From assembly GCF_033095945.1 (NCBI RefSeq), contig NZ_AP026800.1, positions 1,674,001 to 1,738,000 on the forward strand: a stretch of DNA of 64,000 nucleotides, in the 5' to 3' direction. A program made the position numbers and the translations under genes. Source of the stretch: Bombiscardovia apis. Lineage in GTDB: Bacteria > Actinomycetota > Actinomycetes > Actinomycetales > Bifidobacteriaceae. Positions 9,434 through 52,755 of this stretch are shown in pieces (the stretch's first letter is position 1; the number at the start of each line of letters is the position of its first letter). The notes beneath the pieces are model-generated. The model had not been told where the DNA came from. It saw only the letters and a list, made by a program, of their open reading frames with translations, and did no database searches.

Positions 9434-12116
9434 ATGCGAAACGTACGAGCCATCAGCGCTACCGTACTAGCACTATCCTTGACCATCCTGGGGGGGGGGG
9501 TCCGCTAGTTTAACGCACCCAACACTTGCTCACGCAACACCACCCGCGCCCATAACCCCGCCAGCACCGCCAGCCTGTAACATCACGACCGACCCCATAT
9601 CGCAATGCTTCAGCCCCAGCCTTGGGCGAGCGCTTGCCAGCAGATACACATCCGGCAACACCAGCACGCCACTACCCAGCTATGTAACAACTCTTACAAA
9701 TTTGGAATTCCGCAGCAGCGCCATCACGGATTTGAACGGAATACAACACCTGACTCAACTCACTCGTTTAGATTTGTGGAACGATCCGAACGCCAGGGGA
9801 GAAATCCTCGTTTATAACAATAAACTGACTGACGTAACCCCATTGGCCGCCCTGTCTAATCTCACTTATCTTGACTTGCGAACAACCGGCATCGCCAATC
9901 TCAACGGCCTACAGAATCTAACCAATCTTACCGATTTATTGCTTGGCAATATCAGCCATATGAGGCCGTCGCCCTTGGCGTTCAGCGACATCAGCCCGCT
10001 CGCAGCGCTCACCAATTTAAAGAGTCTCGACCTGAGCGTCACCACGGAAGACACATACATACTTGATACGCCTAGCAGAATCAGCGATCTGTCGCCGCTG
10101 AGCAACATGCCGCGGCTACGCACACTCAAGCTCGTCGGACTCGAACTCACCGACGCAAGCTTCGACCAACTTGCCAGCTATCCAAACCTCGCTAACCTCA
10201 CGGCCATCACGCTCGGCGGCTACAAAACCGGGAACATACCCAGCAATCTCAACCCCATACGCAAGCTCACCAAGCTGCAAGACATCACCCTCCTCAACTG
10301 GAGTATGACTGACTTGAGCCCCATAACCTCAATCACAGGACTCACCCAACTGTCCATCACCAACCTAGGAACAACCCGGGCCAACACATTTGAGCAATTA
10401 ACCCCACTGTCTGGACTCACCAGCCTAACGAGCCTGAGCATCATCAACGAATACGACAAAGACGAGTCAACCAGCGCGGATATTCAAAGCCCCATTACCG
10501 ACATAAGACCGCTGCGCAATCTCACAAATCTTCAAAGCCTAACCTTGGACGGGCATAAGATTAGCGACATCAGCCCCTTAAGCGGGCTAACTAGCCTAGG
10601 CTTTTTGAACCTAGGCCACAACGGCCCAGGAAATCGTATAAGCGACATCACACCCTTGAGCAACCTCAACAATCTGATGGAATTGTACTTATGTAACAAT
10701 CAGATTAGCGACATACACGCACTTAGCTCTATACCACGAATGAGGATGCTCGACCTAAGCAATAACCTGCCGAACCGAATGCACTCGCGGCCAGAGTTCA
10801 ACCCCAATCTTCCCCATAATCAGATTGTCGACATCAGCCCTCTAGCCAGCAATCCTTCTTTAACTCAGCTATGGGCTTCAGACAACCACATTCAAGATGT
10901 CACCCCACTGGGCAGCATGAATCAAATAGGACTCGTATGGCTCGAGAATAATCAGATTAGCGACTTAAGCCCCATACAGCATTCGAGCTCCATCTATGGG
11001 CTCTTTCTAGCTGGCAACCGTCTTACCGACAGCCAGGTCGGCATAATAGCCCAGATGCCCTTTGCCAGCCACCAGGGCGGCATCAACCAGGTGAGCCTCG
11101 GCGACGACATCACCGACATAAGTCCTCTCATCGGCACCTACATCATGTCGCTCACCCTCCAGGGCAGTCATCTCGATGCCGACAAACTCACCAGCACCAT
11201 AAGCAGTCTGTCTACCTTGAGCGGATTGTACACCCTAAGACTGCGAAACAATGGCTTTACCAACGAGCAATTCCGCCAGATCATGGGCCAAACCAACTTC
11301 GGTCCTATGAGCTACTTCGCCGTCACCGGCAGCCATGTCACCGACATCACGCCGGTCATGGATAACGCAGCCAGCCTCAACCGCATGAATCAGATGGATC
11401 TATCCGGCAACGAGATCCAAGACATCACCCCCCTCACCAAGAACCTAGGAGCTTTAACGAGCATCACCAATCTCGACATCAGCAATCAGAACGTCCGCCT
11501 GCCAGCCAAGCCCGACTTCGATCCGAACAATCCCATGCGCCTAGGGCCAGCCACCATCGACTCGACAGCCACGCCAAAACGCTACGCGCCCATCGACCCC
11601 ACCAAACCAAGCACGCCGGCAGGCAGCAGCTACGACGCCAACACCGCTACCGTCACATGGCCGGCCACCCTACCCGGCGACTATGCATACAGCTTTAATT
11701 ACGAGGACAGGCTACCTCACGGCGATTTCAAATTCTCCGGTACCATCGCTCAGGAGGTGCCCGGCATCACCGTCAGCTTCGACCCCGACGGCGGCAGCCC
11801 CAGGCCAGCTGACCAGTACCTCCACATTGGAGAAAAAATCGGCATGCCCAGCGGCCCCCACAAACCAGGATTCGTTCTCGGCGGCTGGACCGACAGCGGG
11901 ACCGGCAGCATGTGGGACTTCGCCAACGATACCGTCAGCGCAAACATCACGCTCAAAGCCTACTGGACCACGCCCATGAACCTGCCCAGCGCAGGCAGCA
12001 TACCCCTCGCACGGCTCAGCGGCCTCACCATACTCCTCAGCTCCGGAGGAGCCCTCGCCCTCTACACCCACATACCCCGCCGCTCACGAGGCAAACACTT
12101 ATCCAGCAAACAATAA
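9434..12116 (+). CDS. Phase-variable LRR surface protein 1 (OFF: frameshifted at G11)
   Basis: The ATG at 9434 gives a signal-peptide start (MRNVRAISATVLALSLTIL) that runs into 11 G and then TAG at 9506, so this copy is OFF. Removing one G joins it in frame to the stop at 12116, giving 893 residues with no other interruption. The mature part would have an N-terminal cap with paired Cys (PACNITTDPISQCF), many SDS22/internalin-type 22-residue LRRs (LTxLxLxxNxIxDIxPL) to about residue 690, a C-terminal all-beta region with one InlB-type repeat (VSFDPDGG to ITLKAYW), then LPSAG, a hydrophobic segment and a basic tail. LPSAG plus TM plus RRSRGK reads as a sortase-type cell-wall anchor. The long frame alone starts at a TTG inside the LRRs and would lack secretion. 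Confidence 0.85.
9490..9500 (+). repeat. Poly-G tract (11 G) in surface gene 1
   Basis: Codons CTG GGG GGG GGG GTC CGC TAG are read in this register, giving a stop. Ten G gives TCC GCT AGT and an open frame to 12116. Twelve G also stops, at TAA. Confidence 0.9.
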
Positions 12117-12134
12117 AATACCCACATAAACAGA

Positions 12135-12230
12135 TTCTTGTATGAAAGAAAATCTCCCCTAATCCTAGAGTTTTCTTTTCATACAAGAAAAACTCTGTAA
12201 AAGCGAGTATAATTTCTTGTATGGAAGAAA
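12135..12230. promoter_or_regulatory. Three-copy operator and leaderless promoter of DUF4143 ATPase 1
   Basis: The motif TTCTTGTATGAAAGAAA occurs at 12135-12152 (+), inverted at 12171-12189, and again at 12214-12230 (+), where it overlaps the start codon. TATAAT at 12208-12213 lies only seven bases before the ATG at 12221, so transcription should begin at or next to the start codon, giving a leaderless mRNA. The first two copies form a large inverted repeat after surface gene 1 that could also act as its terminator. The layout suggests autorepression. Confidence 0.6.
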
Positions 12231-13441
12231 CTGACAAGCAGCTGGTTGATCGCCCTCTCTATGTGGACCGTATCATGGAGTTCGCCGATACGGACTTGAT
12301 TAAGGTGCTAACCGGGTTACGCCGTAGTGGCAAGTCGGACCTGCTCAAACTCGTACGCCGCCGCCTGATTGCGCAAGGTCGGAGCCGCGAGCAGTTCATC
12401 TCCCTCAATTTTGAAGACTACGCCCTAAGCCCCTTACGCGATGCCAGCAAGCTCTACGCGCACTTGGAAGAGCGCATCGCCAAGATTTCCGGCAAGCCTT
12501 ACATTTTCCTCGACGAAATCCAAGAAGTGCCCGGCTTTGAAAAGCTCGTAAACTCCCTGCGCGTCGCCCACCAAGCCGACGTCTACATCACCGGCTCCAA
12601 CTCCTCCCTACTCTCCGGCGAGCTCGCCACCTACCTAGCTGGGCGCTATGTACAATTCACCGTTTACCCCTTCGGATTCGCAGAATTCCGCGCAGCCCGC
12701 CAATCCCTAGGCGCCGATGACTCCTTCAAGGCCTTCTTGCAGATGGGCGGCATGCCATTCGCTGCCAGCGGCAATCTGAGCGAGGAAAGCCAGCGCACCT
12801 ACCTTACTGACATCTACCATTCAGTCGTTTTGAAAGACATCGTGCAGCGCTACCGTATCCGCGATATCGCCTTGCTGGAGCGCATTGTCCGCTTCGCACT
12901 CAGCAACGTGGGCAATGTCATTTCGGCCAACTCCGTCGCCTCATATTTGAAGTCCGAGCGCATCGAGCTCAGCAGCCAGACCGTGCTCAACTACTTGAGC
13001 TACTGCCAGCAGTCCTTCCTCTTGGAGCGCCTGGACCGGGTTGACATCATCGGCAAAAAGCAGCTCAAAACCCTGCAAAAATACTACGTGGCCGACCTCG
13101 GACTGCGGCAGGCAATCCTCGGCGACGGGCAGACGCAGATTCAAGGGCTGCTGGAGAACGTGGTCGCACTCGAAGGCCTACGCCGCGGCTACCAAGTGAG
13201 CGTAGGCACCGCCGGCAGCCAAGAAGTCGACTTCATCTTCCGCAAAGGCGAGCGCAAACACTACATCCAAGTCGCCTACCTACTAGACTCCCCCGAAACC
13301 GCCGACCGCGAATTCGGCGCCTTCGCCCCAATCCGCGACTCCTACCCCAAAACCGTCCTAACCCTAGACCCCATCCCCCAACCCCGCAACGGCATCTCCC
13401 ACCGCCACATCGAAGAGTTCCTCCTCGGTAATGATTGGTGA
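12221..13441 (+). CDS. AAA_14/DUF4143 ATPase 1
   Basis: A 406-residue ATPase: Walker A LRRSGKSDL (about residues 33-41), Walker B YIFLDEIQE (about 104), sensor-like YITGSNSSLL and the basic PFGFAEF segment typical of this family. A winged-helix-like segment follows (VISANSVASYLKSERIELSSQTVLNYL, about 225-255), then the C-terminal DUF4143 domain with its PD-(D/E)XK-like strand EVDFIF. The usual EVK is IQVAY here, so nuclease activity is doubtful. The molecular role of the family is not established. It lies about 100 bases after surface gene 1 on the same strand, has a leaderless promoter, and is one of three such ATPases in the window. Confidence 0.85.
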   Translation: MEETDKQLVDRPLYVDRIMEFADTDLIKVLTGLRRSGKSDLLKLVRRRLIAQGRSREQFISLNFEDYALSPLRDASKLYAHLEERIAKISGKPYIFLDEIQEVPGFEKLVNSLRVAHQADVYITGSNSSLLSGELATYLAGRYVQFTVYPFGFAEFRAARQSLGADDSFKAFLQMGGMPFAASGNLSEESQRTYLTDIYHSVVLKDIVQRYRIRDIALLERIVRFALSNVGNVISANSVASYLKSERIELSSQTVLNYLSYCQQSFLLERLDRVDIIGKKQLKTLQKYYVADLGLRQAILGDGQTQIQGLLENVVALEGLRRGYQVSVGTAGSQEVDFIFRKGERKHYIQVAYLLDSPETADREFGAFAPIRDSYPKTVLTLDPIPQPRNGISHRHIEEFLLGNDW

Positions 13442-13500
13442 ACAAACCGCAGGTAACTCCATTTCTATATCTTGCCTATAACTAGATGTGTTGATGTTAT

Positions 13501-14379
13501 TTACTGGCTTATCCCCAGCCATTTAGGCATACTTTCATAACAGAACCAGTCGCTCTTTAGCGCTGCTTTCAGAGCCCATTTTTGATAGTAATTTTTATTG
13601 CCGTAATCATCACAATACTTATATTTCCTTTTTAAAATCTTTCTTGCAGGATTTTTTTTGTCACGGTATTTATCCCAGAGTTCGCAGAATGAAGTACTCC
13701 AAGAATTGCAATCATCAACCCACAGTTCAGAATATTGCTCGGAAATTTTCAGGGTTGAGAAGCTATGTCGTAATCTCTCAAATTTTTCTTTACTCCAACC
13801 ACTTGGCTTAACCGCTGTGACCGAAAAGATAAAAGCGGGCAGTTTGCCTTTTTCCGTTGGAGTCTCTGCTATAGAAACTGTGAGCCAACGCTCATCATCA
13901 AAATCCTCGATATAGGGGTTAAAAAGGACAGTCTCAGCCTGCTGGGCAGTAAATGCTGTAGCTCGTTTTACACCATTACAGCGTTGGCAACATGGGATTA
14001 AATTCAAAGGAGTCACCGACAAGTATTGGTAATCAGCTTTGGGAAGGTAATGATCAAGCTGATTCGCATGATTAACGCCACAATACGGACATCGCATATT
14101 CCCTTTAATCTGCTCAAATTCTCCAAGCCTGGATCGTTGACGTTGATATAATGCCTTCGCTACGTCATTGTCGTCTTTCGAACTACCAGAAAAAGAGGCT
14201 TTGTTTATTTGACATATTGACGATGCTCCATTGCGGACAACATTCTCGTATGTAGCAGAGGCTGAAAGCATGGGTGCTATCAACCGTTCAGCAGATTTTT
14301 TATTACTCTTGCTGCTCCTATCTACGCATTTTCTAATGAGATTTTCTGCCGAAAGAGTCGGCTCATCAATCCTCTTCAT
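13501..14379 (-). CDS. ptuB: Septu defence HNH nuclease PtuB
   Basis: A 292-residue HNH-endonuclease protein. The zinc-finger-type HNH is intact: CPYC (about residue 97), LDHYLPK with the metal/catalytic His, then LIPCCQRCN. It is the second gene of a two-gene unit with the ATPase at 14366-15925, overlapping it by 14 bases; this order and pairing define Septu (PtuA ATPase plus PtuB HNH nuclease), an anti-phage system in which the nuclease cuts DNA when the ATPase complex is triggered. Base composition is clearly more AT-rich than in the flanking genes, a sign of horizontal transfer. Other ATPase-HNH defence pairs look similar, but Septu fits best. Confidence 0.82.
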   Translation of the reverse strand: MKRIDEPTLSAENLIRKCVDRSSKSNKKSAERLIAPMLSASATYENVVRNGASSICQINKASFSGSSKDDNDVAKALYQRQRSRLGEFEQIKGNMRCPYCGVNHANQLDHYLPKADYQYLSVTPLNLIPCCQRCNGVKRATAFTAQQAETVLFNPYIEDFDDERWLTVSIAETPTEKGKLPAFIFSVTAVKPSGWSKEKFERLRHSFSTLKISEQYSELWVDDCNSWSTSFCELWDKYRDKKNPARKILKRKYKYCDDYGNKNYYQKWALKAALKSDWFCYESMPKWLGISQ

Positions 14380-15925: not shown

Positions 15926-16019
15926 AACTCAAACACTTCCATTCAACCGTATTCCCGGTTCTCCTTTATCAATATTTTCTAAGACCCCTCAAATAAGAGT
16001 ATTTAGTATTTTATTTCAC

Positions 16020-17201: not shown

Positions 17202-17214
17202 CTCAGCCCCTTAC

Positions 17215-17774: not shown

Positions 17775-20433
17775 ATGCGCGGGGTTCGTGGGTTTAACGC
17801 TATGGTTCTTGCCCTAGCCTTAACTGTCCTGGGGGGGGGGGTCCGCTAGTCTAGCGAACCCAGTAACTGCCCACGCAACACCACCCGCACCCATAACCCC
17901 ACCAGCACCACCAGCCTGCAACATCACAAGCGACCCCATATCACAATGCTTCAGCCCCAGCTTGGGCCAAGCTCTCGCATATCTTTATACGGGAAGCAAC
18001 ACCGGTGTTCCGCTGCCCGGAGCCAGCTCCATGACCCGTCTTGAACTCCGATCGCAACACGTCACGGATTTAAGCGGCATCCAACATTTGACTAGTCTTA
18101 CCAATCTTGACTTCAGCAGCATCGGTGGCACAAGTATGGCTGATTACAACGCAATAACCGACATCACACCTTTGGCAGCTCTAACCCATTTAACTTCTCT
18201 GAATCTTTCTGGCACCGCAGCCCTCTACCTGACTAATCTGAACGGTCTGCAAAACCTGACCAAACTCAAGACATTGCAACTTGGCAATAGCTCGATTTGG
18301 CGTTTACAACCTCTGGCTTTTACCGACATCAGCCCGCTCGCAGCCCTCACCGATTTGGAAACCCTCGATCTCCATAATCGTTCGGTCTATCTTTTAGATA
18401 CGCCAAGCCGCATTCAGGATTTATCGCCACTTAGCAACCTTACGAAACTAACCACATTAGATCTCATAGGACTTGAGCTAGACGACACCAGCCTCAACCA
18501 AATCGTCAGTTATCCAGCCTTGCACAACATAACCACACTGCGTCTAGGCGGTTACCGAAGCGGCAGAATTCCCACCAACCTCAATTTTCTCAACCGTCTT
18601 CCGAATCTGAAAGACTTAACCTTCAATAACTGGGGAATTACCGATTTCAGCATACTGAATTCGCTATCAACATTGACCGACTTGTCCATAATTAACTGGG
18701 GAACGGTGCGAGCAAACAATTTCAATTCCCTCGATTTCATCTCCAACCTCACCAACTTGAACAGTCTCCTCATCAGCAATGATAGAGATGCGGATCAGCC
18801 AGCGAACTTAGACATAAACGGCAACCTCAGCGATATTTCAGCACTGAGCAGCATGCATAACTTACGGAATCTGACCATTACCGGGCAGAAGGTAAGCGAC
18901 ATAACGGCCCTCACCAACCTCACCAGCCTCACCGAGATCAACTTCGGAACGGGAATAATGAGCACTGTCGGCAATCTGGTAAGCGATCTCACACCGCTCG
19001 CAGGACTCACAAACCTAACAACATTACAATTAGACAACAACAATATAAGCGACCTAAGTCCACTGGCAGGACTCACAAACCTACAAGCCCTTTACGTCGG
19101 GAATACTCAGCCGGGCCACACCCCTTCTCTGCCAGATTACAATCCTGGACTAGCTCACAATCACGTTAGCGACGTAACCCCGTTAGCAGGACTCATACAG
19201 CTCGGACAGCTCTGGCTTCCTGACAATCAAATCACCGACATCACCCCTTTATCCGGACTCAATAATATCTACAACCTTTTCTTGCAAAACAATCAAATCC
19301 GAGACCTTACACCGATTGGGAATACACCTGCGGCTCAATTCTGGGTATATGGTAATCCCCTAGACAATGCCCAGATGGGTATTGTCTCTCAAATGCCGAA
19401 CCTTCACTTTTTAGGAGTGGGAGACGATAGCCTCACCGATATCACCCCGCTCACCAGCATGAATCTCACTCAGCTTACTCTTCAAGGCAGCAATCTCGAC
19501 ATCAGCAGACTATCCAGCAACATCAGCCAATTCCGGACCCTCAGAGATCTAGCCTTGCAAAAGAACAAATTCTCCGATCAACAGTTCTCGCAAATAATCA
19601 GCCAAGCAAATCTCAACTATATTACTACTCTGTCGGTCACCGGCAGCCACATAACCGACATCACACCCATAACCGACAATGCCGCCAAGTTCAGCAACAT
19701 GTCATACCTAACTATGAGCGATAACGAAATAGCAGACATCACGCCACTCACCATTCACATGTCTGATCTGCCAGGAACCATTACCATCGACATCAGTAAG
19801 CAACGCATCCGATTGCCAGACAAACCCGACTTCGATCTCAACACTCCCATGAGCTTAGGGCCTGCCACCATCGACTCAGCAAGCACGCCCAAACGCTACG
19901 CACCAGCGGACTCAAATGATTTATCAACACCGCTAGGCGGAGGATACAGCCCTGCCACTGGCACTATGACATGGCCTGCAACCCTGCCCGGCACTCACAA
20001 CTTCAACTTCTACTACGCGGAAGCACTTAGTCTAGGAGGAAACCTCACTTTCTCCGGCACCATAACCCAAGGCGTGCCCGGCATCACTGTCAGTTTCGAC
20101 CCCGACGGAGGCAGCCCACAACCAGCAGTCCAATACCACCATGTAGGCGAAAAAGTTGACCTGCCCATTAGCCCAAGTAAAAACGGAGTCCTCCTCGGCG
20201 GATGGACCAATAGTGAAACCGGCAGCATGTGGAACTTCGGCAGCGACACCGTCAGCAAAGACATCACCCTCAAAGCCTACTGGACCACACCAATGACCCT
20301 CCCCACCGCAGGAGCAATACCCCTCACCCGGCTCAGCGGACTCACCATACTCCTCACCTCCGGCGGCGCCCTCGCCCTCTACATACTCATGCCAAAGCGC
20401 TCACGCGGCAAACACTTGTCACGTAGGCGATAG
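17775..20433 (+). CDS. Phase-variable LRR surface protein 2 (OFF: frameshifted at G11)
   Basis: The ATG at 17775 begins a signal peptide (MRGVRGFNAMVLALALTVL) that meets 11 G and TAG at 17847. With 10 G it would read through to 20433 as one 885-residue protein: signal peptide ending near TAHA, a Pro-rich stretch, the Cys-paired cap (PACNITSDPISQCF), about 20 internalin-like LRRs, a beta-rich spacer, one InlB-type repeat (VSFDPDGG to LKAYW), LPTAG, a hydrophobic helix and the tail KRSRGKHLSRRR. It is the closest paralogue of surface gene 1 over most of its length, with the same C-terminal anchor region. The expected place is the cell wall; a binding partner cannot be read from sequence. Confidence 0.85.
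17831..17841 (+). repeat. Poly-G tract (11 G) in surface gene 2
   Basis: The tract starts at the third base of codon 19, as in the other copies. Eleven G stops at TAG 17847-17849, twelve G at a TAG two codons further on; ten G opens the gene. Confidence 0.9.
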
Positions 20434-23272: not shown

Positions 23273-25601
23273 ATGCGTCGGGTACGCAACATCAGCGCCA
23301 TGGTCTTAGCGCTAACCTTAACTGTCCTGGGGGGGGGGGTCCGCTAGTTTAGCGCGGCCCACACTAGCCCACGCTGACCAATCAGCACCCATAACACCAC
23401 CCGCACCACCAGCCTGCAACGTAGCAACCGACCCCATCAGCCAATGTTTCAGCCCAAGCCTGGGTCAAGCCCTCGCCAACCAATACACATCAGGCAACAT
23501 CAACACCCCACTGCCCAACACCGCACTCATCACCAGCTCCCTGGATTTTAGTGATTGCGGAATCACCGACCTGAGCGGCATCCAATATTTCAGCAATCTT
23601 CAAACGCTCTCTTTAACCAATTCCAACTCGTTCTCAGGAGTTGCGCCCAACCTGCTCCGAGACCTTACGCCGCTAAGCGCACTCACCAACCTCACAGGAC
23701 TCACGGCATGGAACTGCGGCATCCGCAGCCTCAATGGCTTACAAAACCTCACCAAGCTTAAAGCACTCGACCTGCAAACCAATTACATAAAAAATGCACG
23801 CGGCTCTCTTACCTATGAGAATTTCAATGACTACACCGACCTCAGCCCCCTCTCGGCGCTCACCCGACTTGAAAAGCTCGATCTTTCCCGCGAAATCGTC
23901 ATACACGACGGCGACAGCAGGCCTGGCAACCTCTCCAATATTCAGCCCCTGTCCAGCCTTCATTCACTCGTCGAACTCTTCCTCGGCGGCAATCAAATCA
24001 GCGACGTGCGCCCGCTCAGCTCCCTAAGCAATCTGAAAACGCTGCACCTCGGCAGCCTATGGCTAACCACCAGCGGCAATATGGTAAGCGATCTCAGCCC
24101 CTTAAGCGCTCTGCCGAATCTCATAAGTCTAAACGTGTCAAACAATCAAATCACGGATCTCAGTCCGTTGTCCTCGATCACGAGCTTATCCATCTTGTTC
24201 GCAGGCAACTTATCCGGCAACTACATAAGCGGATCTACTACGAATAAGCCAGGCAATCGCATCACCAGCCTGGCGCCACTTGCCAGCCTCACCAACCTCA
24301 CCAGACTCTGGTTCAGCAACACGGGCGTCGGGTACGACAAGGCCCAGCCCGGCTATGATCCCAACAAGCCAGGCAACCGCATCACCGATCTCAGCCCACT
24401 GACCACGCTCGCCAACCTCAGAGAGATCAGCGTTGACGGACAGCAGACCCTCACCGACCTCAGTCCCCTCGCCGCACTCACCAACCTCACAGCCATAGCG
24501 GCGGGGTCGAACAACGTCACCAGCATCACATCCCTGGAACACCTCACCAACCTCACAACACTCTTACTGGACAGCAACCATCTGGGAGACGACGTCTTCG
24601 CCACCATCCAGAACATGCCCAATATCACAAGTTTAGGTCTGGGTGATCAGATTACCGACATCAGCCCCATCACCAACCTCAATCTCCAATTTCTAACGCT
24701 CTCCGGCAATCACGGCATCACCGACTGGAGCCTGCTCGCCCGCAACATCGGACAATTCCCAAGACTCGAAGGGCTCACTCTCGCAGACGACAGCATCGAC
24801 ACCGCAGCATTCAACACCATCGTCCAGGAAGGCAACTTCAGCAAACTTCATTTCCTCAGCATGCCGAGCAATCAGATCAGCGATGTCACGGCGGTGCGCC
24901 AGAACACAGCCAAATTCAGCAACCTCTGGGCATTCAACGTCAGCAACCAGAACTTTAGCCTGCCAGACAAGCCCGACTATGACGAGCACACGCCCATGAG
25001 CCTGGGAGCGGCCACCATCAACAGCGCCGTCAGCCCGGCCCAATACGCCCAGCCCAACCCAGACATGCCATCCCGGCCCGCCAAAGGCCAGAGCTTCGAT
25101 GCCAACACCGGCATCATGACATGGGACAAGACCATGCCAGGCGACCACCAGTTCAACTTCTACCACTCCAGCCCGATGGGCTTCGGCAACTTCGTCTACT
25201 CCGGCAACTTCTCCCAACGAGTGCCCGGACATCTGGTCAGCTTCGACCCCAACGGCGGCAGCCCCGCCCCCGAAGACCAGGCCCACCACACCGGAAATCT
25301 CGTCACACCACCAAGCCGACCTACGAACGGCAACCAGATCATCGAAGGCTGGTACGACACCGCCACCGCCACCAAATGGAACTTCGCCACCGACACCGTA
25401 ACGGCCGACATCACCCTCCAAGCCCACTGGATACCAGCAATGAACCTCCCCAGCGCAGGAGCCACGCCACTGGCACGACTCAGCGGCGGCGCCCTACTAG
25501 CCAGCAGCGCAGGAGCACTAGTCATCTCACTGCTCTTGCCGCAACGCCGACGCCCAGCACCTGCCCGAAAGAACTACAACCAACGAAAGAGCAAACGCTG
25601 A
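23273..25601 (+). CDS. Phase-variable LRR surface protein 3 (OFF: frameshifted at G11)
   Basis: The signal peptide (MRRVRNISAMVLALTLTVL) meets 11 G and TAG at 23345. Ten G gives an unbroken 775-residue protein to 25601, although the long frame has no usable start before 24006 on its own. The ON protein has the Cys-paired cap (PACNVATDPISQCF), about 16 internalin-like LRRs, a beta spacer (SFDANTGIMTWDKTMPGDH), one InlB-type repeat (VSFDPNGG to TLQAHW), LPSAG, a hydrophobic helix and a basic tail PQRRRPAPARK. The LRR array differs in length and sequence from genes 1 and 2, while signal peptide, cap and anchor are conserved. It lies after the RelB-like gene and ahead of abiEi. Confidence 0.85.
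23329..23339 (+). repeat. Poly-G tract (11 G) in surface gene 3
   Basis: Same position and flanks as in the other OFF copies: stop at TAG with 11 G and with 12 G, open with 10 G. Confidence 0.9.
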
Positions 25602-25636: not shown

Positions 25637-25800
25637 TTATACCCACTGTACAGACTCCATCACGCCTGCTATGGAGCGGCAGACGTCCTCGAACGATATG
25701 TCTTGAGCAAACTCGTTGCTCTTACGATAAGCCTGCCAACGTTTGTGCGCTGCTTCGTCGGGGGGGGGGCATGCTGGCAGACATTGGCAAAAGATTTCAT
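25637..25800 (-). pseudogene. AbiEii toxin remnant (internal deletion, frameshift at a G10/C10 tract)
   Basis: Its ATG (25800) overlaps the abiEi stop as ATGA, the usual abiEi-abiEii coupling. Only the N-terminal MKSFANVCQHA and a C-terminal piece (RWQAYRKSNEF, then SFEDVCRSIAGVM) that resembles the end of AbiEii nucleotidyltransferases remain. The roughly 230 residues with the catalytic centre are gone. The two pieces are joined by ten C on this strand and are out of frame; eleven C would fuse them into a ~53-residue peptide. The toxin cannot be active. Confidence 0.55.
25760..25769. repeat. Poly-G tract (10 G) in the abiEii remnant
   Basis: Ten G on the plus strand (ten C in the coding sense) at the junction of the two abiEii pieces. 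It is the only long G-run in the window outside the surface genes, and has a different length, showing that the 11-G value elsewhere is not a fixed base-calling artefact. Confidence 0.8.
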
Positions 25801-26642: not shown

Positions 26643-28392
26643 ATGCGTCGGGTACGCAACATCAGCGCCATGGTTCTCGCCCTAGCTTTAACTGTCCTGG
26701 GGGGGGGGGTCCGCTAGTTTAGCGAACCCGGCACCAGCCCAAGCCAATTCCAGCCAAACCAGCTCACCCCAAGAAAAATCGGATAAGTCTCACATGGCAG
26801 GGCAGAAAAATGCCAAGCAGACGATTACCACGCGCGACAGACCCTGCAATCGAGACAGAGACACGATAGCCCAGTGCTTCCCCGATCCTCAACTCGCCAG
26901 CTGCATCGCCAGGTCACAGAACACAACCGTTAACGGCTATCTCACTTCGACCAATCCTGGACCAGACCTGTACTGCAGCGGGGTGAGCTCCTTGAAGGGA
27001 TTGGAAGCATTTTCTCGCATCTCACGCATTGATCTCTCCAATGGAACGATTACCAGTCTGGAGCCGCTCCGCCACGTCTCGATAACTTTCATCACATTCG
27101 ATAACAATCTCGTCTCAGACATATCACCCTTGGTATCTATTTTAGACGACTCAACAAAAATGGGACTCAATAAAATATCCGGGGTTAACAATTGCATATA
27201 CGACATGAGCCCTTTCTATGATCATCGCCCATACGACGGGACGCGTCCATGGGAAATGAACTTCCGCAATCAAAAGGTTGTGCTCCCTGACATCGTACTG
27301 CCCACAGGTAGGTATACCCTCCCCCGCGCTAAGTACGCCACCTGGAAAACAGCACAGGGTCCGGGCACCCCTCATAAGAAATACTCGTCGTCGTTTTCTT
27401 CGCCGCGCCCCAGCAGTCCGAATACAACAACCGATGATGTTCTAGTGTGGAACAATGCTAGAGCAGGCACCTACTCCTACACCTTTGAAAACCACTACGT
27501 AATATCCCACGATTATGACATCCACAGCACCCCACACTGGTGCCACTTCACCGGCACCGTCTCCCAAACGCTCTACACTACCTACGAAGTCAAGCTTGAC
27601 CCCAACGGCGGAAACCCTGGCACACAGACTATGAATGTACGTTCCAACACTGCCATTGGTAGCATCCCCGTCCTGCCTACTCGCGACCATTATGAGGTGA
27701 CTGGATGGTCGCTAGACAAATACGGACGCTCACCCTGGAATTTGGCCACTAATATCGTCACCCAACCCATCACCCTATACGCCCAATGGAAGGTACGCAC
27801 CTATACAGTCACCTTCGACCCCAACGGCGGAAGCCCGACCAGCACCCAGCCAGTTGTTTATAACAACACCATCAGCTCAGTAACGCAGCCTCCCAACCGC
27901 AACGGAAATTGGAGGCTGACCGGCTGGGCCAAGGATCGAACAGGCAATCAGCCATGGAACTTAGCATCAAACCGAGTGACAGACGATCTCACTCTTTACG
28001 CCCAGTGGATTAAACAATACCACGTCAAGTTCGACGTAAACGGCGGGTCGGCCTTGGCACCCGACATAGCTGAGAGCAACGTCGACACCGGATCAGCACT
28101 TGTCGCACCAACAACCGTAAAACAGGGATGGCTCGTGGTCGGCTGGTCGCAACAGGCAGACGGCACTGGCCCCATGTGGAACTTCTCAACCAACCGTGTC
28201 CGCGCGGACATCACCCTGTATGCAATATGGGAGAAGATGGTGCCCATGAGTCTACCAAAGGCCGGAGTTTTGCCCATACAACGCCTGACTGCTGGCGGTC
28301 TGCTGGCGCTCAGCTCATTAGCAGCCCTGATTTACTCAGGCCACACCATAATCCGTCGGCACCGGCACAACAACCACCTGCCACAGCAGTGA
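26643..28392 (+). CDS. Phase-variable InlB-repeat surface protein 4 (OFF: frameshifted at G11)
   Basis: It has the family signal peptide (MRRVRNISAMVLALALTVL), the 11-G tract and TAG at 26715. With 10 G it codes for 582 residues; the downstream frame also has an ATG at 26794 but this would drop the signal peptide. Unlike the other six, it keeps only two or three degenerate LRRs (about residues 105-170) after the Cys-paired cap. It carries three InlB-type repeats (LDPNGGNPG, FDPNGGSPT, FDVNGGSAL), each ending in YAQW/YAIW, before LPKAG, a hydrophobic helix and RRHRHNN. It is therefore a stalk-like member with a different exposed region. Cell-wall anchoring is inferred from the LPKAG-TM-basic end. 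Confidence 0.82.
26699..26709 (+). repeat. Poly-G tract (11 G) in surface gene 4
   Basis: Same codon position and same flanking bases as genes 2, 3 and 5; the current length gives TAG four codons after the tract starts. Confidence 0.9.
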
Positions 28393-28623: not shown

Positions 28624-30919
28624 ATGCGTCGGGTACGCAATATGAGCACCATGGTTCTAGCGCTAGCCTTAACTGTCTTGGGGGGGGGGGTCCGCTAGTC
28701 TAGCGAACCCGGCACTAGCCCACGCCAACCAATCCGCACCCATAACCCCACCAGCCCCACCAGCCTGCAACATAGCAACCGACCCCATCAGCCAATGCTT
28801 CAGCCCCAGCCTCGGCCAAGCCATCGCCAAGCACTACACCCTCGACAACAACATCAACACACCACTTCCCACCTATGCACTCTATTCGAAGAGCATGGAT
28901 CTTAGAACCGAGGGCATTACTGACCTCAACGGCATCCAATACTTCACCGACCTCATCGACCTCAACCTCAGCAATAACCCAAATCCAACCTCTACGACCA
29001 CGATGAACTCGCTCACTGACCTCACTCCATTGAGCGCTCTCACCCAACTCAAAATTTTCAACGCGCAGAATGCGAACATTCACAGTCTCAACGGACTGCA
29101 AAACCTCACTCAACTCAGCAGTCTTGGCCTCGAGAATATAGGGACTGCCAGTAGAAACACCATCACTGATCTCAGCCCACTCACAGGACTCACCCAACTC
29201 ACCAGTCTCCGACTTACAGGCAACCAGATCAGCAACATCCAACCACTCGCAGGCCTCACCAACCTCACCAACCTCGAACTCGGCAATCGCAGTTCCTCTG
29301 TTGGAGGAAGTATTGGAGGAGGTAATCTTGTTACCAGTCTGGCACCCTTAAGCGGTCTTACCCGACTCACTACTCTTGACGTAAGCAATAATCGAGTCAG
29401 CGATCTTACACCCTTGCAAGGCCTCACCAACCTCACATCACTCTCCATTGCCAACTCGATGTCTCACCCCAAAACAGGTGAAGTCAACCACGTCACCGAT
29501 CTCACCCCCATAGCCAATCTCACTAACCTGAGACGATTAAACCTAGCAAACTATAATTGGGGCACCTACGAATCAGCCTTCCCCAACTACGAACCCAACC
29601 TACCCGGCAACAGGGCCAGTAACTTAGCTCCACTCGCCAACCTCACCAACTTAACCCACTTATACCTCGACAACAACGGAATCAGCGACATTAGCGTTCT
29701 AGCCAACATGACAAACTTAACCGGCCAACTCTGGCTCAGCGACAACAACATTAGCAACATCACACCACTCGCCGGACTACCCCTCAAAGGAGAACTACTC
29801 CTCTTCGGCAATCCAGTCGGCTCAGACTCAGACCTAGCCATCATCGCCAGCATGACCGACCTCTGGGGACTCATGATCGGCAACAAAATCACCGACATCA
29901 CACCGCTCACAGGCCTCAACAAACTCAACGAACTCTTCCTCGTCGGCTGCCACAACCTCGACATTGATAAAACAGCAGCAGCCATACCCCACTTCCCTGC
30001 ACTCGCTGACTTCGGTCTCACCGATGACAACATCGACAACGCAAAACTCTCCACCATCATCACCAACACCGACCTCAACAAACTCAAAATCCTCAGTTTC
30101 ACCTACAACAAAATCACCGATGTCACACCCATACTCCAAAACCCCAGCAAACTCACCCACCTCCAACGTCTCGAAGTGAGTACCCAATACATTCGATTGC
30201 CAGATAAACACGACTACAACGTACACAACCCCATGAGCCTAGGACCCGCAACCATCAACGACACGATCACACCACATCAAATTGCGACAGAAGACACTAT
30301 CAAACCGTCAACACCAACCGCAGGTAAAAGTTTCAACGCCACTACTGGAATCATGACATGGGATAAAACCATGCCCGGCGACCACGAATACAACTTCAAC
30401 TACCAAGCCACCATCGCCACCAGCCCAGTAACCAACTTCAACTTCACATACTCCGGCACCATCGCACAACGAGTACCAGGCATCACCGTCATCTTCGACA
30501 CCGACGGAGGCACACCACAACCAGACAACCAAGCCCACCACCAAAATGAAAAAGTCACACCACCAATCCAAGTTAACAAACCCAACTGGCACCTCGACGG
30601 CTGGTACAACACCACCACGGGGACCAAATGGGACTTCGACAACGACACTGTTACCGCTGACATCACACTCAAAGCCCACTGGAAAGCCTTCGTTCCTATG
30701 ACCCTACCCATAGCAGGGGCTATTCCGTTGGCTCGATTGGGCGGGATTACGATACTGAGCAGTAGCGCGGGGGCTTTGGCTTTGTTCTTGTTGTTGCCGC
30801 AGCGGCGGCGCAGGGAACATGCCCGGCAGAGTTATAGCTTTGGACGGAACACGGGTGAGGTAGCTCTTAGCGAAGCGGGGAGCTCGGTGGACTTTCCCTC
30901 GCATAGGAACATTGAATAA
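28624..30919 (+). CDS. Phase-variable LRR surface protein 5 (OFF: frameshifted at G11)
   Basis: The family signal peptide (MRRVRNMSTMVLALALTVL) is followed by 11 G and TAG at 28696. Ten G restores a 764-residue frame to 30919. The ON product has the Cys-paired cap (PACNIATDPISQCF), about 16 internalin-like LRRs including a Gly/Ser-rich loop (SSVGGSIGGGN), a beta spacer (TGIMTWDKTMPGDH, shared with gene 3), one InlB-type repeat (VIFDTDGG to LKAHW), LPIAG, a hydrophobic helix and a basic PQRRRREHARQ. About 30 further residues follow the basic stretch, longer than in the paralogues. Its upstream region is a copy of that of gene 3, and a strong terminator follows. Confidence 0.85.
28680..28690 (+). 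repeat. Poly-G tract (11 G) in surface gene 5
   Basis: Preceded by CTT (TTG codon here instead of CTG) and followed by TCCGCTAGTCTAG; OFF at 11 and 12 G, open at 10 G. Confidence 0.9.
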
Positions 30920-47031: not shown

Positions 47032-47190
47032 TAGGATAAGGTCTTAAAGCGTGCAATGAGTGGTTTTGCGAGTGTGGGTTGGGAAACTTGCAAAAGTGCC
47101 GCGCCTTATTGGGCTACGCACAGCGCAAATGTATGAGATTTGATAGGCCGGGCACTACGCAGCGCTCACAGGCCTTGCGGAGGGGTTTTT
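47032..47190 (+). promoter_or_regulatory. Promoter and leader of surface-protein gene 6
   Basis: TAGGAT (47032-47037) is the likely -10. The leader has TTTTGC (47064-47069) pairing with GCAAAA (47090-47095) around the core GGTTGGGAAACT (47077-47088). The region down to the ATG (GGCCTTGCGGAGGGGTT) is nearly identical to that of gene 1. The stretch 46789-47031 contains no gene; it shares TACGGTTT-type segments with 9170-9250. Confidence 0.55.
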
Positions 47191-50014
47191 ATGCGTACCG
47201 TACAAGCCATTAGTGCTACCGTACTTGGGCTGTCCTTGAGCATCCTGGGGGGGGGGGTACGCTAGTTTAGCGGCTCCCACCCCGGCCTACGCCAACCCCG
47301 CATCCGATAACGCTCAACCTGCACCCAGCGAAGACGCTCCCGCACACGATTCACAACCAGCACCAGCACCAACTCCGGCGCCCGCACCAGCTCATTCGGC
47401 CCCTCACTTAAGCCCCCGCGGCGGCAACTGCACCATCGACAGCAGCAGCATCGCCACCTGCGTTCCCGACCCTAAGCTCGCCGCAAAAATCGCCACAGCA
47501 CTCGGCACCACTAGCTCGGCAACGCTCACCAGCACTCTCATCGACAGTCTCACCAACCTCAGCGCATCTCGTGGCGGCATAACAAACATTGAGGGCATAC
47601 AACACTTCACCAAACTCCAAACACTCACCATAAACAATAACCAAATCACCGACCTCAGCCCAGTCACCGACCTACCCAGCCTCACCAGCATTATGGCAGT
47701 CTCCAATCAGATCACGAACGCAGGCAACCTCAACAACCCCAACCTCACGTCGATCAACTTGGGCAGTAATAGCCTCACCAGCGTAACCAGCGTCAACTGG
47801 GCTAGCCTCACCAAACTCCAAACACTCACCATAAACAATAACCAAATCACCAATTTCAGCCCAGTCACCGCACTACCCAGCCTCACCAGCATAGATGCAT
47901 CCAGCAATCAGATCACAAGCGCAGGCGACCTCAACAACCCCAATCTCACCACCCTCAACCTCAGCAGCAATAGCCTCACCAGCGTAACCAGCATCAACTG
48001 GGCCAACCTCACCAAACTCCAAACACTCAGCCTCATCAATAATCAAATAACTAACCTCAGCCCGGTCACCGGACTACCCCGCCTCACCAGCTTGACAGCA
48101 AGCGCTAATCAGATTACAAACGCAGGCAACCTCAACAACCCCAACCTCACCACCCTCAACCTCAGCAACAATAGCCTCACCAGCATAGGCAGCATCAACT
48201 GGCCCGCCCTCACCAAACTCCAAAGTCTCGACCTAGGCACTAATCAAATAACAGACCTCAGCCCCGCCACTGGACTGCCCCGCCTTATCAAATTAGTGGC
48301 GGTTAGCAATCAGATCTCAAGCGTGGGCAACCTCAACAACCCCAACCTCACCACCCTCAGCTTAGGCAACAATAATCTCGCCAGCATAGGCAGCATCAAC
48401 TGGCCCGCCCTCACCAAACTCCAAACACTGACCATCAACGTTAATCAAATAACTGACATCAGCCCCATCACTGAACTACCCAGCCTCACCAGTTTGAACG
48501 CTTCCAACAACCAAATCACAAGCGTAGGCAACCTCAACAACCCCAAACTTCTGAATTTGGCTCTGTCTTACAATACAATCCCCAGCATAACCAGCATCAA
48601 CTGGACCAACCTCACCAAACTCCAAAACCTCAGCCTCAACAACAATCAAATAGGCGATCTCAGCCCAGTCACCGGACTACCCCGCCTCACCAGTTTGAAC
48701 GCTTCCAACAACCAAATCACCAACGCAGGAAACCTCAACAACCCCAACGTCACAAGCCTCATACTCAACAACAATAACCTCACCAGCATAGCCAGCGTCA
48801 ACTGGAGCAACCTCACCAAACTCCAAAACCTTAGCCTCAACAACAATCAAATAAGCAATCTCAGCCCGGCAGCAAGACTACCCAGACTCACTCGTTTGAA
48901 CGCTTCCAACAACCAAATCACCAACGCTGGCAACATCAACAGCCCCGAGCTCGCCTACCTCAGCCTAGATAACAACAGACTTCCCAGTATTTCCAGTATC
49001 AGCTGGACTAACCTCCCCAAACTCCGCGAACTCGACTTGCACACCAACAAGATAGGCGACCTCAGCCCAGTCACCGGACTGCCTCGCCTCACGCACTTGA
49101 ACGCTTCTTATAACCAAATCACCAACGCAGGAAACCTCAACAACCCCAACCTCATATATCTAAATCTGAGCAACAATACAATCGCCAACATAGAAAGCAT
49201 CAGTTGGAACACCGTCACCAAACTCACTGAGCTCTACCTAGACAGCAACCAGATTACGGATATCAGTAGCATCAACTGGAACAAACTCACTAGCCTCAGG
49301 AACTCAAGCAAAGTCAATCTATCCAATCAAAACGTACGTTTACCAGCTCTCCCTAGCTACACCGACACACCCCTTACGCTCGGCCCAGCCATTATCAGCT
49401 CAAACCCAAACATCTTCGCCGTGCCAGACATAGATGCCGTAAACAACACCAATAGTCAAACCCCCTGCGGCGGCTATTACAATCCCAGCGACGGCACCTA
49501 TATTTGGTCATGCTCTTACCCAATAAACCATCGATATGCCTTCAAAGGCAACGTCATCCTGCCTTACATTGCCGACCCCATCGTATTCAGCGGCCTTATT
49601 TCCCAAGGCGTATCCGGATACGCAGTAACCTTCGACCCCAACGGCGGCTCCTTGTTCTCCCCCACAATCGTGGCCGTTCCCACTGCCGGAGGCTATATCA
49701 GCGAGCCAAGTGACGAACCAACGAAGGGCGCCGCGAATGAATTCCTGGGCTGGTACACAGCAATCGAGGGCGGCCGCAGATGGAATTTCTCTACTATGAC
49801 GGTGAACAGCAACATGACCCTCTATGCCCGCTGGACTCCAGCCGTCGCTCTTCCACCGGCCGGGAATACCCCGATTCAGCTGTGGAGCGGAGCGGGTTTT
49901 CTAACAACTAGCGCACTGGCAGCAGCAGGATACGGGAGTTATGCAATAAAGCAGCGCTCCAAAACCAGCAGCAGGCACGCAGTCAAACGCAATTCATCAC
50001 CCTTACTGGCATAA
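47191..50014 (+). CDS. Phase-variable LRR surface protein 6 (OFF: frameshifted at G11)
   Basis: The signal peptide (MRTVQAISATVLGLSLSIL) runs into 11 G and TAG at 47263. Ten G yields the largest member, 940 residues, ending at 50014. It would contain a Pro/Ala-rich stretch, a Cys-paired cap of a second type (GGNCTIDSSSIATCVPDPKLAAKI), and about 24 highly regular LRRs of two alternating forms (NQITNAGNLNNPNLTTLNLS and SINWxxLTKLQxLxLxxNQI). A beta spacer, one InlB-type repeat (VTFDPNGG to TLYARW), LPPAG, a hydrophobic helix and a basic tail follow. Cap and repeat type pair it with gene 7, which begins 80 bases downstream, so these two form a separate subgroup. Confidence 0.85.
47247..47257 (+). 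repeat. Poly-G tract (11 G) in surface gene 6
   Basis: Followed by TACGCTAGTTTAG. With 11 G the frame is GTA CGC TAG; with 12 G it stops at TAG two codons later; with 10 G it is open to 50014. Confidence 0.9.
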
Positions 50015-50094
50015 AACCGGCGACCGCACATGCACTTTTCCAGCTCTAGCCATTCTTCATTACACGCTCAGATAATCGTCCGTTAGGAGTTACC

Positions 50095-52755
50095 ATGCGA
50101 AACACACGAGCCCTCGGCCTTGCGGCATTTACCTTATTCTTAACTCTCCTGGGGGGGGGGGTAGCGGTCAGCACACCAGCCCACGCGCAACCCGCTTCTA
50201 GCGGCACTCAACCAGCGCAGCGCATAGATACTTCGGCCCATCATGCCCAACCAGCACCAGCCATTCCGGCCATTCAGCTGAGCCCTCGCGGCAGCAACTG
50301 CACTATCAACAGCAGCAGCATCGCCACCTGCGTTCCCGACCCCAAGCTAGCCGCAAAAATCGCCACAGCACTCCGCACATCTACATCTGCAACCCTCACC
50401 ACCGCCCTCGTCGATAGCCTCGACACTCTTAAAGCGCAAAGTGCAGGAATCGTAAGCGTTGAGGGCATTCAACACTTCACCAAGCTCAGAGAAATCCGTA
50501 TCGACAACAACCAGATAACCGACATCAGCCCCATCACCGGACTACCCGACCTCAGCACGCTGAGCGCAAACTCTAACCAGATAACAACCGTAGGCGCGCT
50601 CGATAACCCCAGCCTCCAAAGTCTCCAATTACAGATAAATAAGATATCGAGCATAGCCAGCATCAACTGGACCAACCTCACCAAACTCCAAAACATCGAC
50701 CTCGCCAACAACCAGATAACCGACATCAGCCCAGTCACCGGACTACCAAGCCTCACCGGGCTGCGGGCGCAGAATAATCAAATAACAAACCTCGGCAGCT
50801 TTGACAATCCCAATATCGAACACCTCTATCTGAAAAACAACAAGATAACGAGCGTAAGCAGTGTCAACTGGAGCAACCTCACCAAACTCCAAAACATCGA
50901 CCTCGCCAACAACCAGATAACCGACATCAGCCCAGTCACCGGACTACCAAGCCTCACCGGGCTGCGGGCGCAGAATAATCAAATAACAAACCTCGGCAGC
51001 TTTGACAATCCCAATATCGAACACCTCTATCTGAAAAACAACAAGATAACGAGCGTAAGCAGTGTCAACTGGAGCAACCTCACCAAACTCCAAAACATCG
51101 ACCTCGACAACAACCAGATAACCGACATCAGCACCATCACCGGACTACCAAGCCTCACTAGGATAGATGCTAACGTTAATCAGATAACGAACGTGGGTAA
51201 CTTCAACAACCCAAATATCACAATACTCAACCTATGCCAGAATAAAATATCGAGCATAGCCAGCATCAGCTGGACCAACCTCACCAAACTCCAATCACTC
51301 GGCCTCAACAACAACCAGATAACCGACATCAGCACCATCACCGGACTACCAAGCCTCACCCATCTAAACGTAGATGCTAATCAGATAACGAACACCGGCG
51401 CCCTCAACAACCCCAACCTCACATACATAATCCTGAGCCATAATAAAATATCGAGCATAGCCGATATCAGCTGGACCAACCTCACCAAACTCCAAACACT
51501 CAGCCTCTACAACAACCAGATAACCGACATCAGCACCATCACCGGACTACCCGACCTCAGCACGCTGAGCGCAAACTCTAACCAGATAACAACCGTAGGC
51601 GCGCTCGATAACCCCAGCCTCCAAGGTCTCCAATTACAGAGAAATAAGATATCGAGCATAGCCAGCATCAACTGGAGCAACCTCACCAAACTCCAAAGCC
51701 TCGACATTAGCAACAATCAAATAACCGACATCAGCCCCATCACCGGGCTACCCAACCTCAGCAGGATAGAAGCATACCGTAATCAGATAACAACCGTAGG
51801 CGCTCTCGATAACCCCAGCCTCACTTATGTTATCTTATTTAAGAATAAAATAGCGAGTATAGCTAGCGCCAACTGGAGCAACCTCACCAAGCTTCAAGTT
51901 CTCTCTTTGTTTGATAACGAGATATCTGATATTAATTGCGTCAGTTGGAACAGCCTCACTGAATTACAACTAATACAACTACACAACAATCAGATTACTG
52001 ATATCAGCAGCATCGACTGGAACAGACTCACTAAAATTACCTCATCTGATTTAGTCACACTATCTGGGCAACAGCTGATCCTACCAGATTCGCCCGGCTA
52101 CACAGACGACCCATTCGTCCTAGGCCCCGCCACCATCAGCCACAATCCGGACACCTACTCGCCTGCAGCTAAAGACGAGCATAACAACGATCGGGTAGGG
52201 CCAGCCGGCTACACATACAACGCCAACAATGGCACCTACGAGTGGGAATGCTCCTACCCAGGGCATTATAGCTACACGTTCGGCACCAAGCTCTCCTTGC
52301 CCTACGCCTCAGGCACTGTCAGCTTCGACGGAAGCATTGCTCAACAGGTTCCCGGTCTCGCTGCCCTGTTTGACCCCAACGGCGGCACACTAAACACGCC
52401 AAAAGGAGTCGCAGTACTCACTGCCGGCAGCACCATAAGCGAACCCAACCCCAAACCCACCAAAAGCGGCCACGTACTCCTCGGCTGGTACACCACCCCC
52501 ACAACAGGCGGCAGCAAATGGGATTTCGCCGCCATGCCAGTAAACGGCAACATGACCCTCTACGCCCGCTGGGCACCCACCTTCACCCTCCCCCAGTCCG
52601 GAGCTATCCCCCTACAACAATGGGGCGGCGGCGGACTACTAGCCACCAGCGCACTAGCCGGACTCACCTACGCCAGCCGCCACATCAGGCACCACAGCAC
52701 AAAGCGCAAGCAGCCCGCCCCAACCCAAGAATCAAACCAACCAACCACCAACTAA
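50095..52755 (+). CDS. LRR surface protein 7, the only copy in the ON register
   Basis: An intact 886-residue frame: signal peptide MRNTRALGLAAFTLFLTLL-GGGVAVSTPAHA with cleavage expected after AHA, a Pro/Ala-rich stretch, the Cys-paired cap (SNCTINSSSIATCVPDPKLAAKI), about 22 LRRs alternating SINWxxLTKLQ and NQITxxGxLxNPxL forms, a beta spacer, one InlB-type repeat (ALFDPNGG to TLYARW), LPQSG, a hydrophobic helix and KRKQP tail. The 11 G are in frame because the following bases (GTAGCG) differ from the other copies; 10 G would give TAG at once, and 12 G a TAG about 15 codons on. The gene lacks the structured leader and lies 80 bases after gene 6, with TTAGGAG before the ATG. It contains a perfect 201-base internal duplication. 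Confidence 0.92.
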   Translation: MRNTRALGLAAFTLFLTLLGGGVAVSTPAHAQPASSGTQPAQRIDTSAHHAQPAPAIPAIQLSPRGSNCTINSSSIATCVPDPKLAAKIATALRTSTSATLTTALVDSLDTLKAQSAGIVSVEGIQHFTKLREIRIDNNQITDISPITGLPDLSTLSANSNQITTVGALDNPSLQSLQLQINKISSIASINWTNLTKLQNIDLANNQITDISPVTGLPSLTGLRAQNNQITNLGSFDNPNIEHLYLKNNKITSVSSVNWSNLTKLQNIDLANNQITDISPVTGLPSLTGLRAQNNQITNLGSFDNPNIEHLYLKNNKITSVSSVNWSNLTKLQNIDLDNNQITDISTITGLPSLTRIDANVNQITNVGNFNNPNITILNLCQNKISSIASISWTNLTKLQSLGLNNNQITDISTITGLPSLTHLNVDANQITNTGALNNPNLTYIILSHNKISSIADISWTNLTKLQTLSLYNNQITDISTITGLPDLSTLSANSNQITTVGALDNPSLQGLQLQRNKISSIASINWSNLTKLQSLDISNNQITDISPITGLPNLSRIEAYRNQITTVGALDNPSLTYVILFKNKIASIASANWSNLTKLQVLSLFDNEISDINCVSWNSLTELQLIQLHNNQITDISSIDWNRLTKITSSDLVTLSGQQLILPDSPGYTDDPFVLGPATISHNPDTYSPAAKDEHNNDRVGPAGYTYNANNGTYEWECSYPGHYSYTFGTKLSLPYASGTVSFDGSIAQQVPGLAALFDPNGGTLNTPKGVAVLTAGSTISEPNPKPTKSGHVLLGWYTTPTTGGSKWDFAAMPVNGNMTLYARWAPTFTLPQSGAIPLQQWGGGGLLATSALAGLTYASRHIRHHSTKRKQPAPTQESNQPTTN
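50151..50161 (+). repeat. Poly-G tract (11 G) in surface gene 7 (ON)
   Basis: Codons CTG GGG GGG GGG GTA GCG GTC: the current length keeps the frame open. Loss or gain of one G brings TAG into frame. Confidence 0.9.
50673..51106 (+). repeat. Perfect 201-bp tandem duplication inside surface gene 7
   Basis: Bases 50673-50905 are identical to 50874-51106, i.e. two exact 201-base copies plus 32 bases of a third. Each unit codes for 67 residues, three LRRs. Being a multiple of three, copy-number change would alter LRR length without breaking the frame. Confidence 0.9.

What the first reader, a model, noticed from the sequence alone, without database searches (positions are those of the whole stretch)
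9434..52755. Seven-member family of surface proteins switched by a G11 tract inside the signal peptide
All seven genes (ATGs at 9434, 17775, 23273, 26643, 28624, 47191, 50095) carry exactly 11 G after codon 18. In six, deleting one G turns a 24-codon dead end into an open frame of 582-940 codons with no other defect. Six independent decays would not leave six otherwise perfect frames, so this is a contingency system. G-tract slippage is a known phase-variation mechanism, and has been described for bifidobacterial pili, but I know of no description of such an LRR/InlB-repeat family.
Basis: partly seen in the sequence, partly recalled or inferred. Interest (0 to 1): 0.96.

Follow-up and report, generated by a model that had tools for sequence, protein, structure and literature searches.

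The report
Thirty-nine-gene G-tract surface switch

Summary
In detail: all seven genes carry exactly G11 at the end of the signal-peptide core, six are closed, one (50095) is open, and the six downstream frames (560-918 codons) are intact. But the set is larger: 39 of the genome's 69 G>=10 runs sit 56, 57 or (once) 62 nt after an ATG in the same kind of leader. Behind them are two scaffolds: 27 RCC1-propeller and 10 LRR/InlB proteins, plus an InlB-only protein and a fragment. All 39 run against the replication fork. Honeybee bifidobacteria carry RCC1-like genes with G11-13 just after the signal peptide. Slipped-strand phase variation, known from bifidobacterial pili and Gardnerella, is the best explanation. 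Switching itself was not observed.

The parts
9434..12116 (+). Gene 1: leader ATG 9434, G11 at 9490-9500 (closed as assembled), downstream LRR/InlB frame 9501-12116 with LPSAG anchor
17775..20433 (+). Gene 2: leader, G11 at 17831-17841 (closed), downstream LRR/InlB frame 17842-20433 with LPTAG anchor
   Evidence: AlphaFold2 model of the body, mean pLDDT 71.5, LRR part mostly well predicted, end poor
23273..25601 (+). Gene 3: leader, G11 at 23329-23339 (closed), downstream LRR/InlB frame 23340-25601 with LPSAG anchor
26643..28392 (+). Gene 4: leader, G11 at 26699-26709 (closed), downstream frame 26710-28392 with three InlB-type repeats, no LRR hit, LPKAG anchor
28624..30919 (+). Gene 5: leader, G11 at 28680-28690 (closed), downstream LRR/InlB frame 28691-30919 with LPIAG anchor; ortholog in B. 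nodaiensis is G10 and open, dN/dS 0.32
47191..50014 (+). Gene 6: leader, G11 at 47247-47257 (closed), downstream LRR/InlB frame 47258-50014 with LPPAG anchor
50095..52755 (+). Gene 7: leader, G11 at 50151-50161, open as assembled (886 aa), LRR/InlB, LPQSG anchor; ortholog in B. nodaiensis is G10 and also open, dN/dS 0.38

Best explanation
The seven genes are part of a genome-wide set of 39 genes for predicted cell-wall proteins that share a leader with a run of ten or eleven G at about codons 19-22, and slippage of that run during replication likely switches each gene on or off independently. In frame, the run codes for three glycines between the hydrophobic core and a region that ends like AHA, so a predicted Sec signal peptide leads into the mature protein; out of frame, translation ends within a short leader peptide. 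Shown here: the anatomy, the scale, the two scaffolds (RCC1 propeller and LRR, mostly with InlB-type repeats), largely intact frames, purifying selection in the ortholog pairs tested, different run lengths between orthologs, and one orientation against replication. Inferred: that length changes within a population, that sortase anchors the proteins, that the purpose is to vary the surface in the bee gut.
For: Seven of seven window genes have the run at the same codon. 39 of 69 G>=10 runs lie in such leaders against 0 of 9 readable G9 runs. 34 of 34 bodies that are intact and were read to their end have an anchor-like motif, 30 of the form LPx[AST]G by script, one LPIAG further from the end and three variants MPKAG, IPSAG, MPQAG by eye. 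Orthologous-type leaders have runs of 10, 10-11, 12-13 and 12-14 in four species. Register differs among members (34 need 1 mod 3, four 0, one 2), so bases next to the run have changed while an openable gene was kept. RCC1-like genes of two honeybee-type species have G11-13 just behind the signal peptide. Replication slippage at such runs is shown for B. breve pili (PMC9187656) and length change between colonies for one Gardnerella gene (PMC11287997).
Against: No length change within one strain was seen. Four of 30 closed genes have a further defect. Runs are nearly uniform in length within two genomes (22 of 22 leader runs G10 in G021; 38-41 of all its 44 runs), which independent random switches would not give; it points to consensus calling or to a common equilibrium. 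Five of 22 leader genes in G021 are closed at G10, so uniform length is not explained by selection for ON. 25 of 69 runs are not in such genes and were not explained.
Confidence: 0.86

Rival explanations
1. The runs are real switches or not, but their lengths in this assembly are mis-called: homopolymer compression in a PacBio consensus makes most runs read 10 or 11, so the ON/OFF states given are unreliable. This is compatible with the best explanation.
For: 46 of 69 runs are G11 and only one is longer; B. nodaiensis has 38-41 of 44 runs at G10; both sets include runs outside leaders. The paper on B. apis and B. nodaiensis used PacBio Sequel or RSII with CANU in the Methods and names a hierarchical assembly process in Results. 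Penno et al. report measured lengths that differ from the annotated ones.
Against: The modes differ between the two genomes (11 and 10), and G10 and G11 are both present here (22 and 46). That this genome is the PacBio strain KimH is itself inferred.
Confidence: 0.4
2. RNA polymerase or the ribosome slips on the G run, so that every gene gives some full-length protein whatever the DNA length; the run is a frameshift element and not a DNA switch.
For: Uniform run lengths within a genome fit a fixed element better than independent switches.
Against: Run length differs between orthologs and species, and the best-studied relative switches by replication slippage (PMC9187656). Nothing in my calls tests transcripts or protein.
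Confidence: 0.08
3. The closed genes are decaying paralogs that each lost the frame at a mutable run.
For: 4 of 30 closed genes have a further defect and 0 of 9 open ones do.
Confidence: 0.04

Closest known systems
G-tract replication-slippage switch of Bifidobacterium sortase-dependent pili (B. breve UCC2003 and others, PMC9187656)
   Same: A G run of 8-13 near the start of the first pilus gene sets the frame between a Sec signal and an LPXTG body; replication slippage measured by deep sequencing; same bacterial family.
   Different: There one or two pilus operons per strain in the paper's Table 1; here 39 leaders in one genome in front of LRR and RCC1 proteins that are not pilins. The nearest thing in this genome may be the C11 genes at 384168 and 729204, each with a sortase hit about 7 kb on.
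Variable homopolymers at Gardnerella surface genes (PMC11287997)
   Same: Long homopolymers at many surface-protein genes, InlB-repeat and LPXTG proteins among them; one run shown to vary between colonies.
   Different: About 70% of G/C runs there lie upstream of genes and about a quarter inside; no shared leader is described in the passages and section seen.
RCC1-repeat wall proteins of bee bifidobacteria (PMC4449606, PMC3447821)
   Same: RCC1 domains with the Listeria-Bacteroides repeat and an LPxTG-type end; 7-24 genes per genome. Same architecture as the 27 here.
   Different: A word search of both texts found no homopolymer, phase variation or frameshift.
Listeria internalins (InlA/InlB)
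   Same: LRR body, InlB-type repeat, wall anchor; best solved-structure match of 50095 is internalin A, E 1.6e-48, with a weak match of residues 78-149 to the start of that chain.
   Different: No Internalin_N (PF12354) or LRR_adjacent (PF08191) hit at E 0.001 in the seven; no G-run switch is known to me for internalins (recalled).
Neisseria Opa proteins
   Same: A multigene surface family in which each member is switched by a repeat early in the coding sequence; that the repeat lies in the leader is recalled, the five-base repeat in the coding sequence is mentioned in a passage of PMC11287997.
   Different: Pentamer repeat, Gram-negative outer-membrane proteins, fewer loci (recalled).

Membership tests
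Slipped-strand contingency locus (phase variation) | Homopolymer of slippage-prone length inside a coding frame, so that length sets the frame | tested here: met
   Seven of seven in the window; 39 in the genome
Slipped-strand contingency locus (phase variation) | Closed gene is otherwise intact and under selection | tested here: met
   Window: 6 of 6 closed genes intact. Genome: 26 of 30 closed. dN/dS 0.19-0.32 in the 8 closed pairs
Slipped-strand contingency locus (phase variation) | Run length differs between related genomes | tested here: met
   9 of 10 ortholog pairs are 11 here and 10 in B. nodaiensis, one is 10 in both; 12-14 in G026 and 12-13 in G001. Lengths as assembled
Slipped-strand contingency locus (phase variation) | Reversible length change within a clonal population | not testable with these tools
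   No reads or further strains of this species at hand
Bifidobacterial pilus G-tract switch | Switched gene is a pilin with its sortase in the same cluster | tested here: not met
   Window genes are LRR/InlB proteins; the eight sortase hits of the genome lie between 69 and 736 kb, none in the window at 1674-1738 kb
Bifidobacterial pilus G-tract switch | G run between the signal peptide start and the body | tested here: met
Listeria internalin family | LRR domain plus InlB-type repeat | tested here: met
   Six of seven window genes; 26643 has the repeat only
Listeria internalin family | Internalin_N cap and LRR_adjacent domain by Pfam model | tested here: not met
   No hit at E 0.001 in seven of seven; a weak sequence match to the start of InlA exists
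Bee-bifidobacterial RCC1 wall proteins (genome set, outside the window) | RCC1 repeats, Listeria-Bacteroides repeat, anchor | tested here: met
   RCC1 in 26 of 26 scanned of 27; PF09479 in 18 of the 25 of the main set; anchor

The most novel reading that the evidence does not exclude
Bee-gut bifidobacteria run a combinatorial coat of about 40 wall proteins on two unrelated repeat scaffolds through one phase-variable signal-peptide cassette, and the cassette's G run is held head-on to replication so that fork direction tunes how fast the coat changes.
Probability: 0.25. Interest if true: 0.82.

Novelty: new variant of a known kind. Interest (0 to 1): 0.64.

Why it matters
If it switches, a clone could show a very large number of combinations of its 35 not visibly broken leader genes, a scale of phase variation that I know mainly from pathogens (recalled), in an insect-gut bacterium. 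It would give a testable reason why RCC1 and LRR families multiply in bee bifidobacteria, would mean that genes annotated there as truncated or short may be switches, and offers a natural test of whether replication direction affects slippage.

Tried and rejected
Equal run length as evidence of function was rejected. Decay was rejected for the ortholog pairs tested. Membership in a pilus operon was rejected for the window genes. Free shuffling of leaders between scaffolds has one clear case: the 54-nt leader of LRR gene 645198 is 93% identical to that of an RCC1-like gene in B. nodaiensis and 91% to that of the neighbouring LRR gene, its ortholog; apart from the related 1522798, and three leaders closest to RCC1 ones at 74% or with a tie, leaders of the non-RCC1 genes are closest to each other. 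The search for the leader in other genomes covers only the form ATGCG-N50..54-G9, so other forms were missed. The one structure model had four sequences and is poor after about residue 660. The literature search is limited to an open-licence library.

Full report
WHAT IS THERE. Six frames close at 24 codons; 50095 reads through for 886 aa. In the six, the frame behind the run is open for 871, 863, 753, 560, 742 and 918 codons and the two others close within 1-3 codons. Pfam gives LRR plus the InlB-type repeat PF09479 in six, and three PF09479 repeats alone in 26643. All seven carry LPSAG, LPTAG, LPKAG, LPIAG, LPPAG or LPQSG near the end, followed by a hydrophobic stretch and basic residues (sequences).

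WHERE. The window is bases 1674001-1738000 of a 1,937,113-base single-contig genome. Its biotin carboxylase is 80% identical to Bombiscardovia coagulans and Bifidobacterium bombi, the best two of 80 loci listed (the own genome may be left out there). Relative G021 (2,288,291 bases) is B. nodaiensis by the name of its proteins, G026 is Bifidobacterium xylocopae likewise. The genome at hand is probably B. apis KimH: one chromosome, and 54.0% G+C in the 406 kb read against 53.9% stated; this is inference. Both Bombiscardovia strains came from a carpenter bee (PMC10433979: sections 6 and 15 and passages).

SCALE. The genome has 69 runs of >=10 G (either strand): 46 of 11, 22 of 10, one of 12, and 11 of exactly 9. 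A script asking for an ATG 50-69 nt before the run, an early basic residue and a hydrophobic stretch places 39 of the 69 in a signal-peptide-like leader, 56 (23), 57 (15) or 62 nt (1) from the ATG; 0 of the 9 readable G9 runs qualify, two were not fetched. Majority leader over 39 + 22 leaders of two genomes: MRRxRxxSAxxLALxLTV. Five more genes have a run in another leader type: 470350 (G11, TTG start), 242216 and 246585 (C11, large proteins), 384168 and 729204 (C11; a sortase hit lies about 7 kb on). The other 25 runs were not assigned.

TWO SCAFFOLDS. By BLAST score the 39 bodies form groups of 27, 10, 1 and 1. Of the 27, 25 were scanned in one set, all matching RCC1 and 18 of them PF09479; a 26th (696470) was in a set of seven, the one RCC1 match there; 691615 was not scanned because it crosses two fetched stretches. 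The ten are the LRR group, six of them in the window. Window 26643 and the fragment 562273 stand alone. Four bodies are broken (562273, 565877, 696470, 1522798); 92389 was not read to its end. The other 34 have an anchor-like motif: 30 LPx[AST]G by script, LPIAG in window gene 28624 further from the end, and MPKAG, IPSAG, MPQAG by eye.

STATES AS ASSEMBLED. 30 closed, 9 open: all 8 with G10, and 50095 with G11. 34 need a length of 1 mod 3, four 0, one 2, so the register beside the run has shifted in some members while an openable gene was kept.

SELECTION. 39 bodies against 22 of G021 give 10 reciprocal best pairs with dN/dS (NG86) 0.19-0.38. Window gene 50095: 0.38, open in both, with 11 and 10. 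dS reaches 1.43, so ratios are rough, and no pair was found for the other five window genes.

RELATIVES. The pattern ATGCG-N50..54-G9 was sought in 27 genomes of the genus and occurs in 8. G000, G021, G026 and G001 have leader-like sites; one site each in G010, G012, G015 and G016, and one of the sites in each of G001 and G026, do not look like the leader (by eye). The reversed pattern hits once each in G000, G017 and G026. Leader runs: 22 of 22 G10 in G021, 17 open and 5 closed; 14, 13, 12, 12, 12, 12 in G026, two open, and one of the four others has no long frame behind it; 12 (open) and 13 (closed) in G001. Runs there are 11-13, two of seven open. RCC1 was judged by motif there, not by Pfam. 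The layout is thus wider than the Bombiscardovia leader, at a different codon.

ORIENTATION. dnaA lies at 793 on +, 16S genes at 28 and 145 kb on +. GC skew is positive in 22 of 23 fetched stretches up to 0.9 Mb and negative in 15 of 16 after; the stretches were chosen around runs, so skew alone is not independent. All 39 leader genes lie on - before and on + after the turn, against the fork. By strand of the G run, 44 of 44 switch-like genes, 16 of 25 other runs and 4 of 11 G9 runs share this polarity (Fisher p 3.6e-5 for the first two); the 39 form 21 clusters more than 20 kb apart. G021 shows the same split, 10 on - below 894 kb and 12 on + above 1286 kb, with 16S on + at 16 and 201 kb; its turning point was not measured. 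The four C-run genes run with the fork but keep the polarity of the G strand; they are two related-looking pairs. Whether selection on slippage or shared descent is the cause is open.

CAVEAT ON LENGTH. G021 has 44 runs of >=10 (55 minus 11 windows), two of exactly 11, hence 38-41 of exactly 10. Such uniformity over unrelated runs suggests consensus calling or a common equilibrium; PMC10433979 used PacBio Sequel or RSII, and Penno et al. found measured lengths to differ from annotated ones (PMC9187656 Discussion). Single ON/OFF calls should not be trusted.

NOVELTY. Known: G-run replication slippage in bifidobacterial pili (PMC9187656: abstract, sections 12, 21 and 22, and part 1 of 3 of Results), homopolymers at Gardnerella surface genes (PMC11287997: passages and section 11), RCC1 wall proteins of bee bifidobacteria (PMC4449606 and PMC3447821: passages). 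Nine searches of an open-licence library (one search listed 20 of 46) showed no title or abstract opening on a shared leader switch of LRR or RCC1 families. I file it as a new variant of a known kind.

Noticed in passing
window 13501-15925 (-): An AAA ATPase (PtuA model E 3.7e-112; PDC-M01A) and an HNH-type protein (PDC-M01B) lie together between genes 1 and 2: a Septu-like candidate defence pair.
   Followed up: partly
window 12221-13441 (+), 16020-17201 (-), 52906-54135 (-): Three AAA_14/DUF4143 ATPases among the surface genes; the first two match candidate defence model PDC-S01, the third was not scanned against PADLOC.
   Followed up: partly
window 25760-25769: A G10 run downstream of gene 3 that is not in a leader of the shared type; the ORF 25797-26393 (-) beside it has a just-below-cutoff AbiEi_4 hit.
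   Followed up: no
G000:C1 384168-384178 and 729204-729214: Two similar genes with C11 in the leader, closed as assembled, each with a sortase hit about 7 kb downstream: possible pilus switches.
   Followed up: partly
G000:C1 0-1.94 Mb: All 39 leader genes are oriented against replication; cause unknown.
   Followed up: partly
189 genomes of the family: G10-window counts differ widely between genomes, from 0 to 394 (G026); G062, G098 and G157 also exceed 200.
   Followed up: no
G000:C1 839723-839755 and 863149: A C10 and a G10 run 13 bases apart, with a near copy of the surrounding sequence at 863149; the run at 831580 likewise has a near copy at 860787.
   Followed up: no
L224 (G002:C1:63440-68400), base 401: A G13 run near the start of a 298-codon frame without RCC1 motifs that looks like a membrane protein in a honeybee-type bifidobacterium, closed as assembled; possibly another switch.
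   Followed up: no
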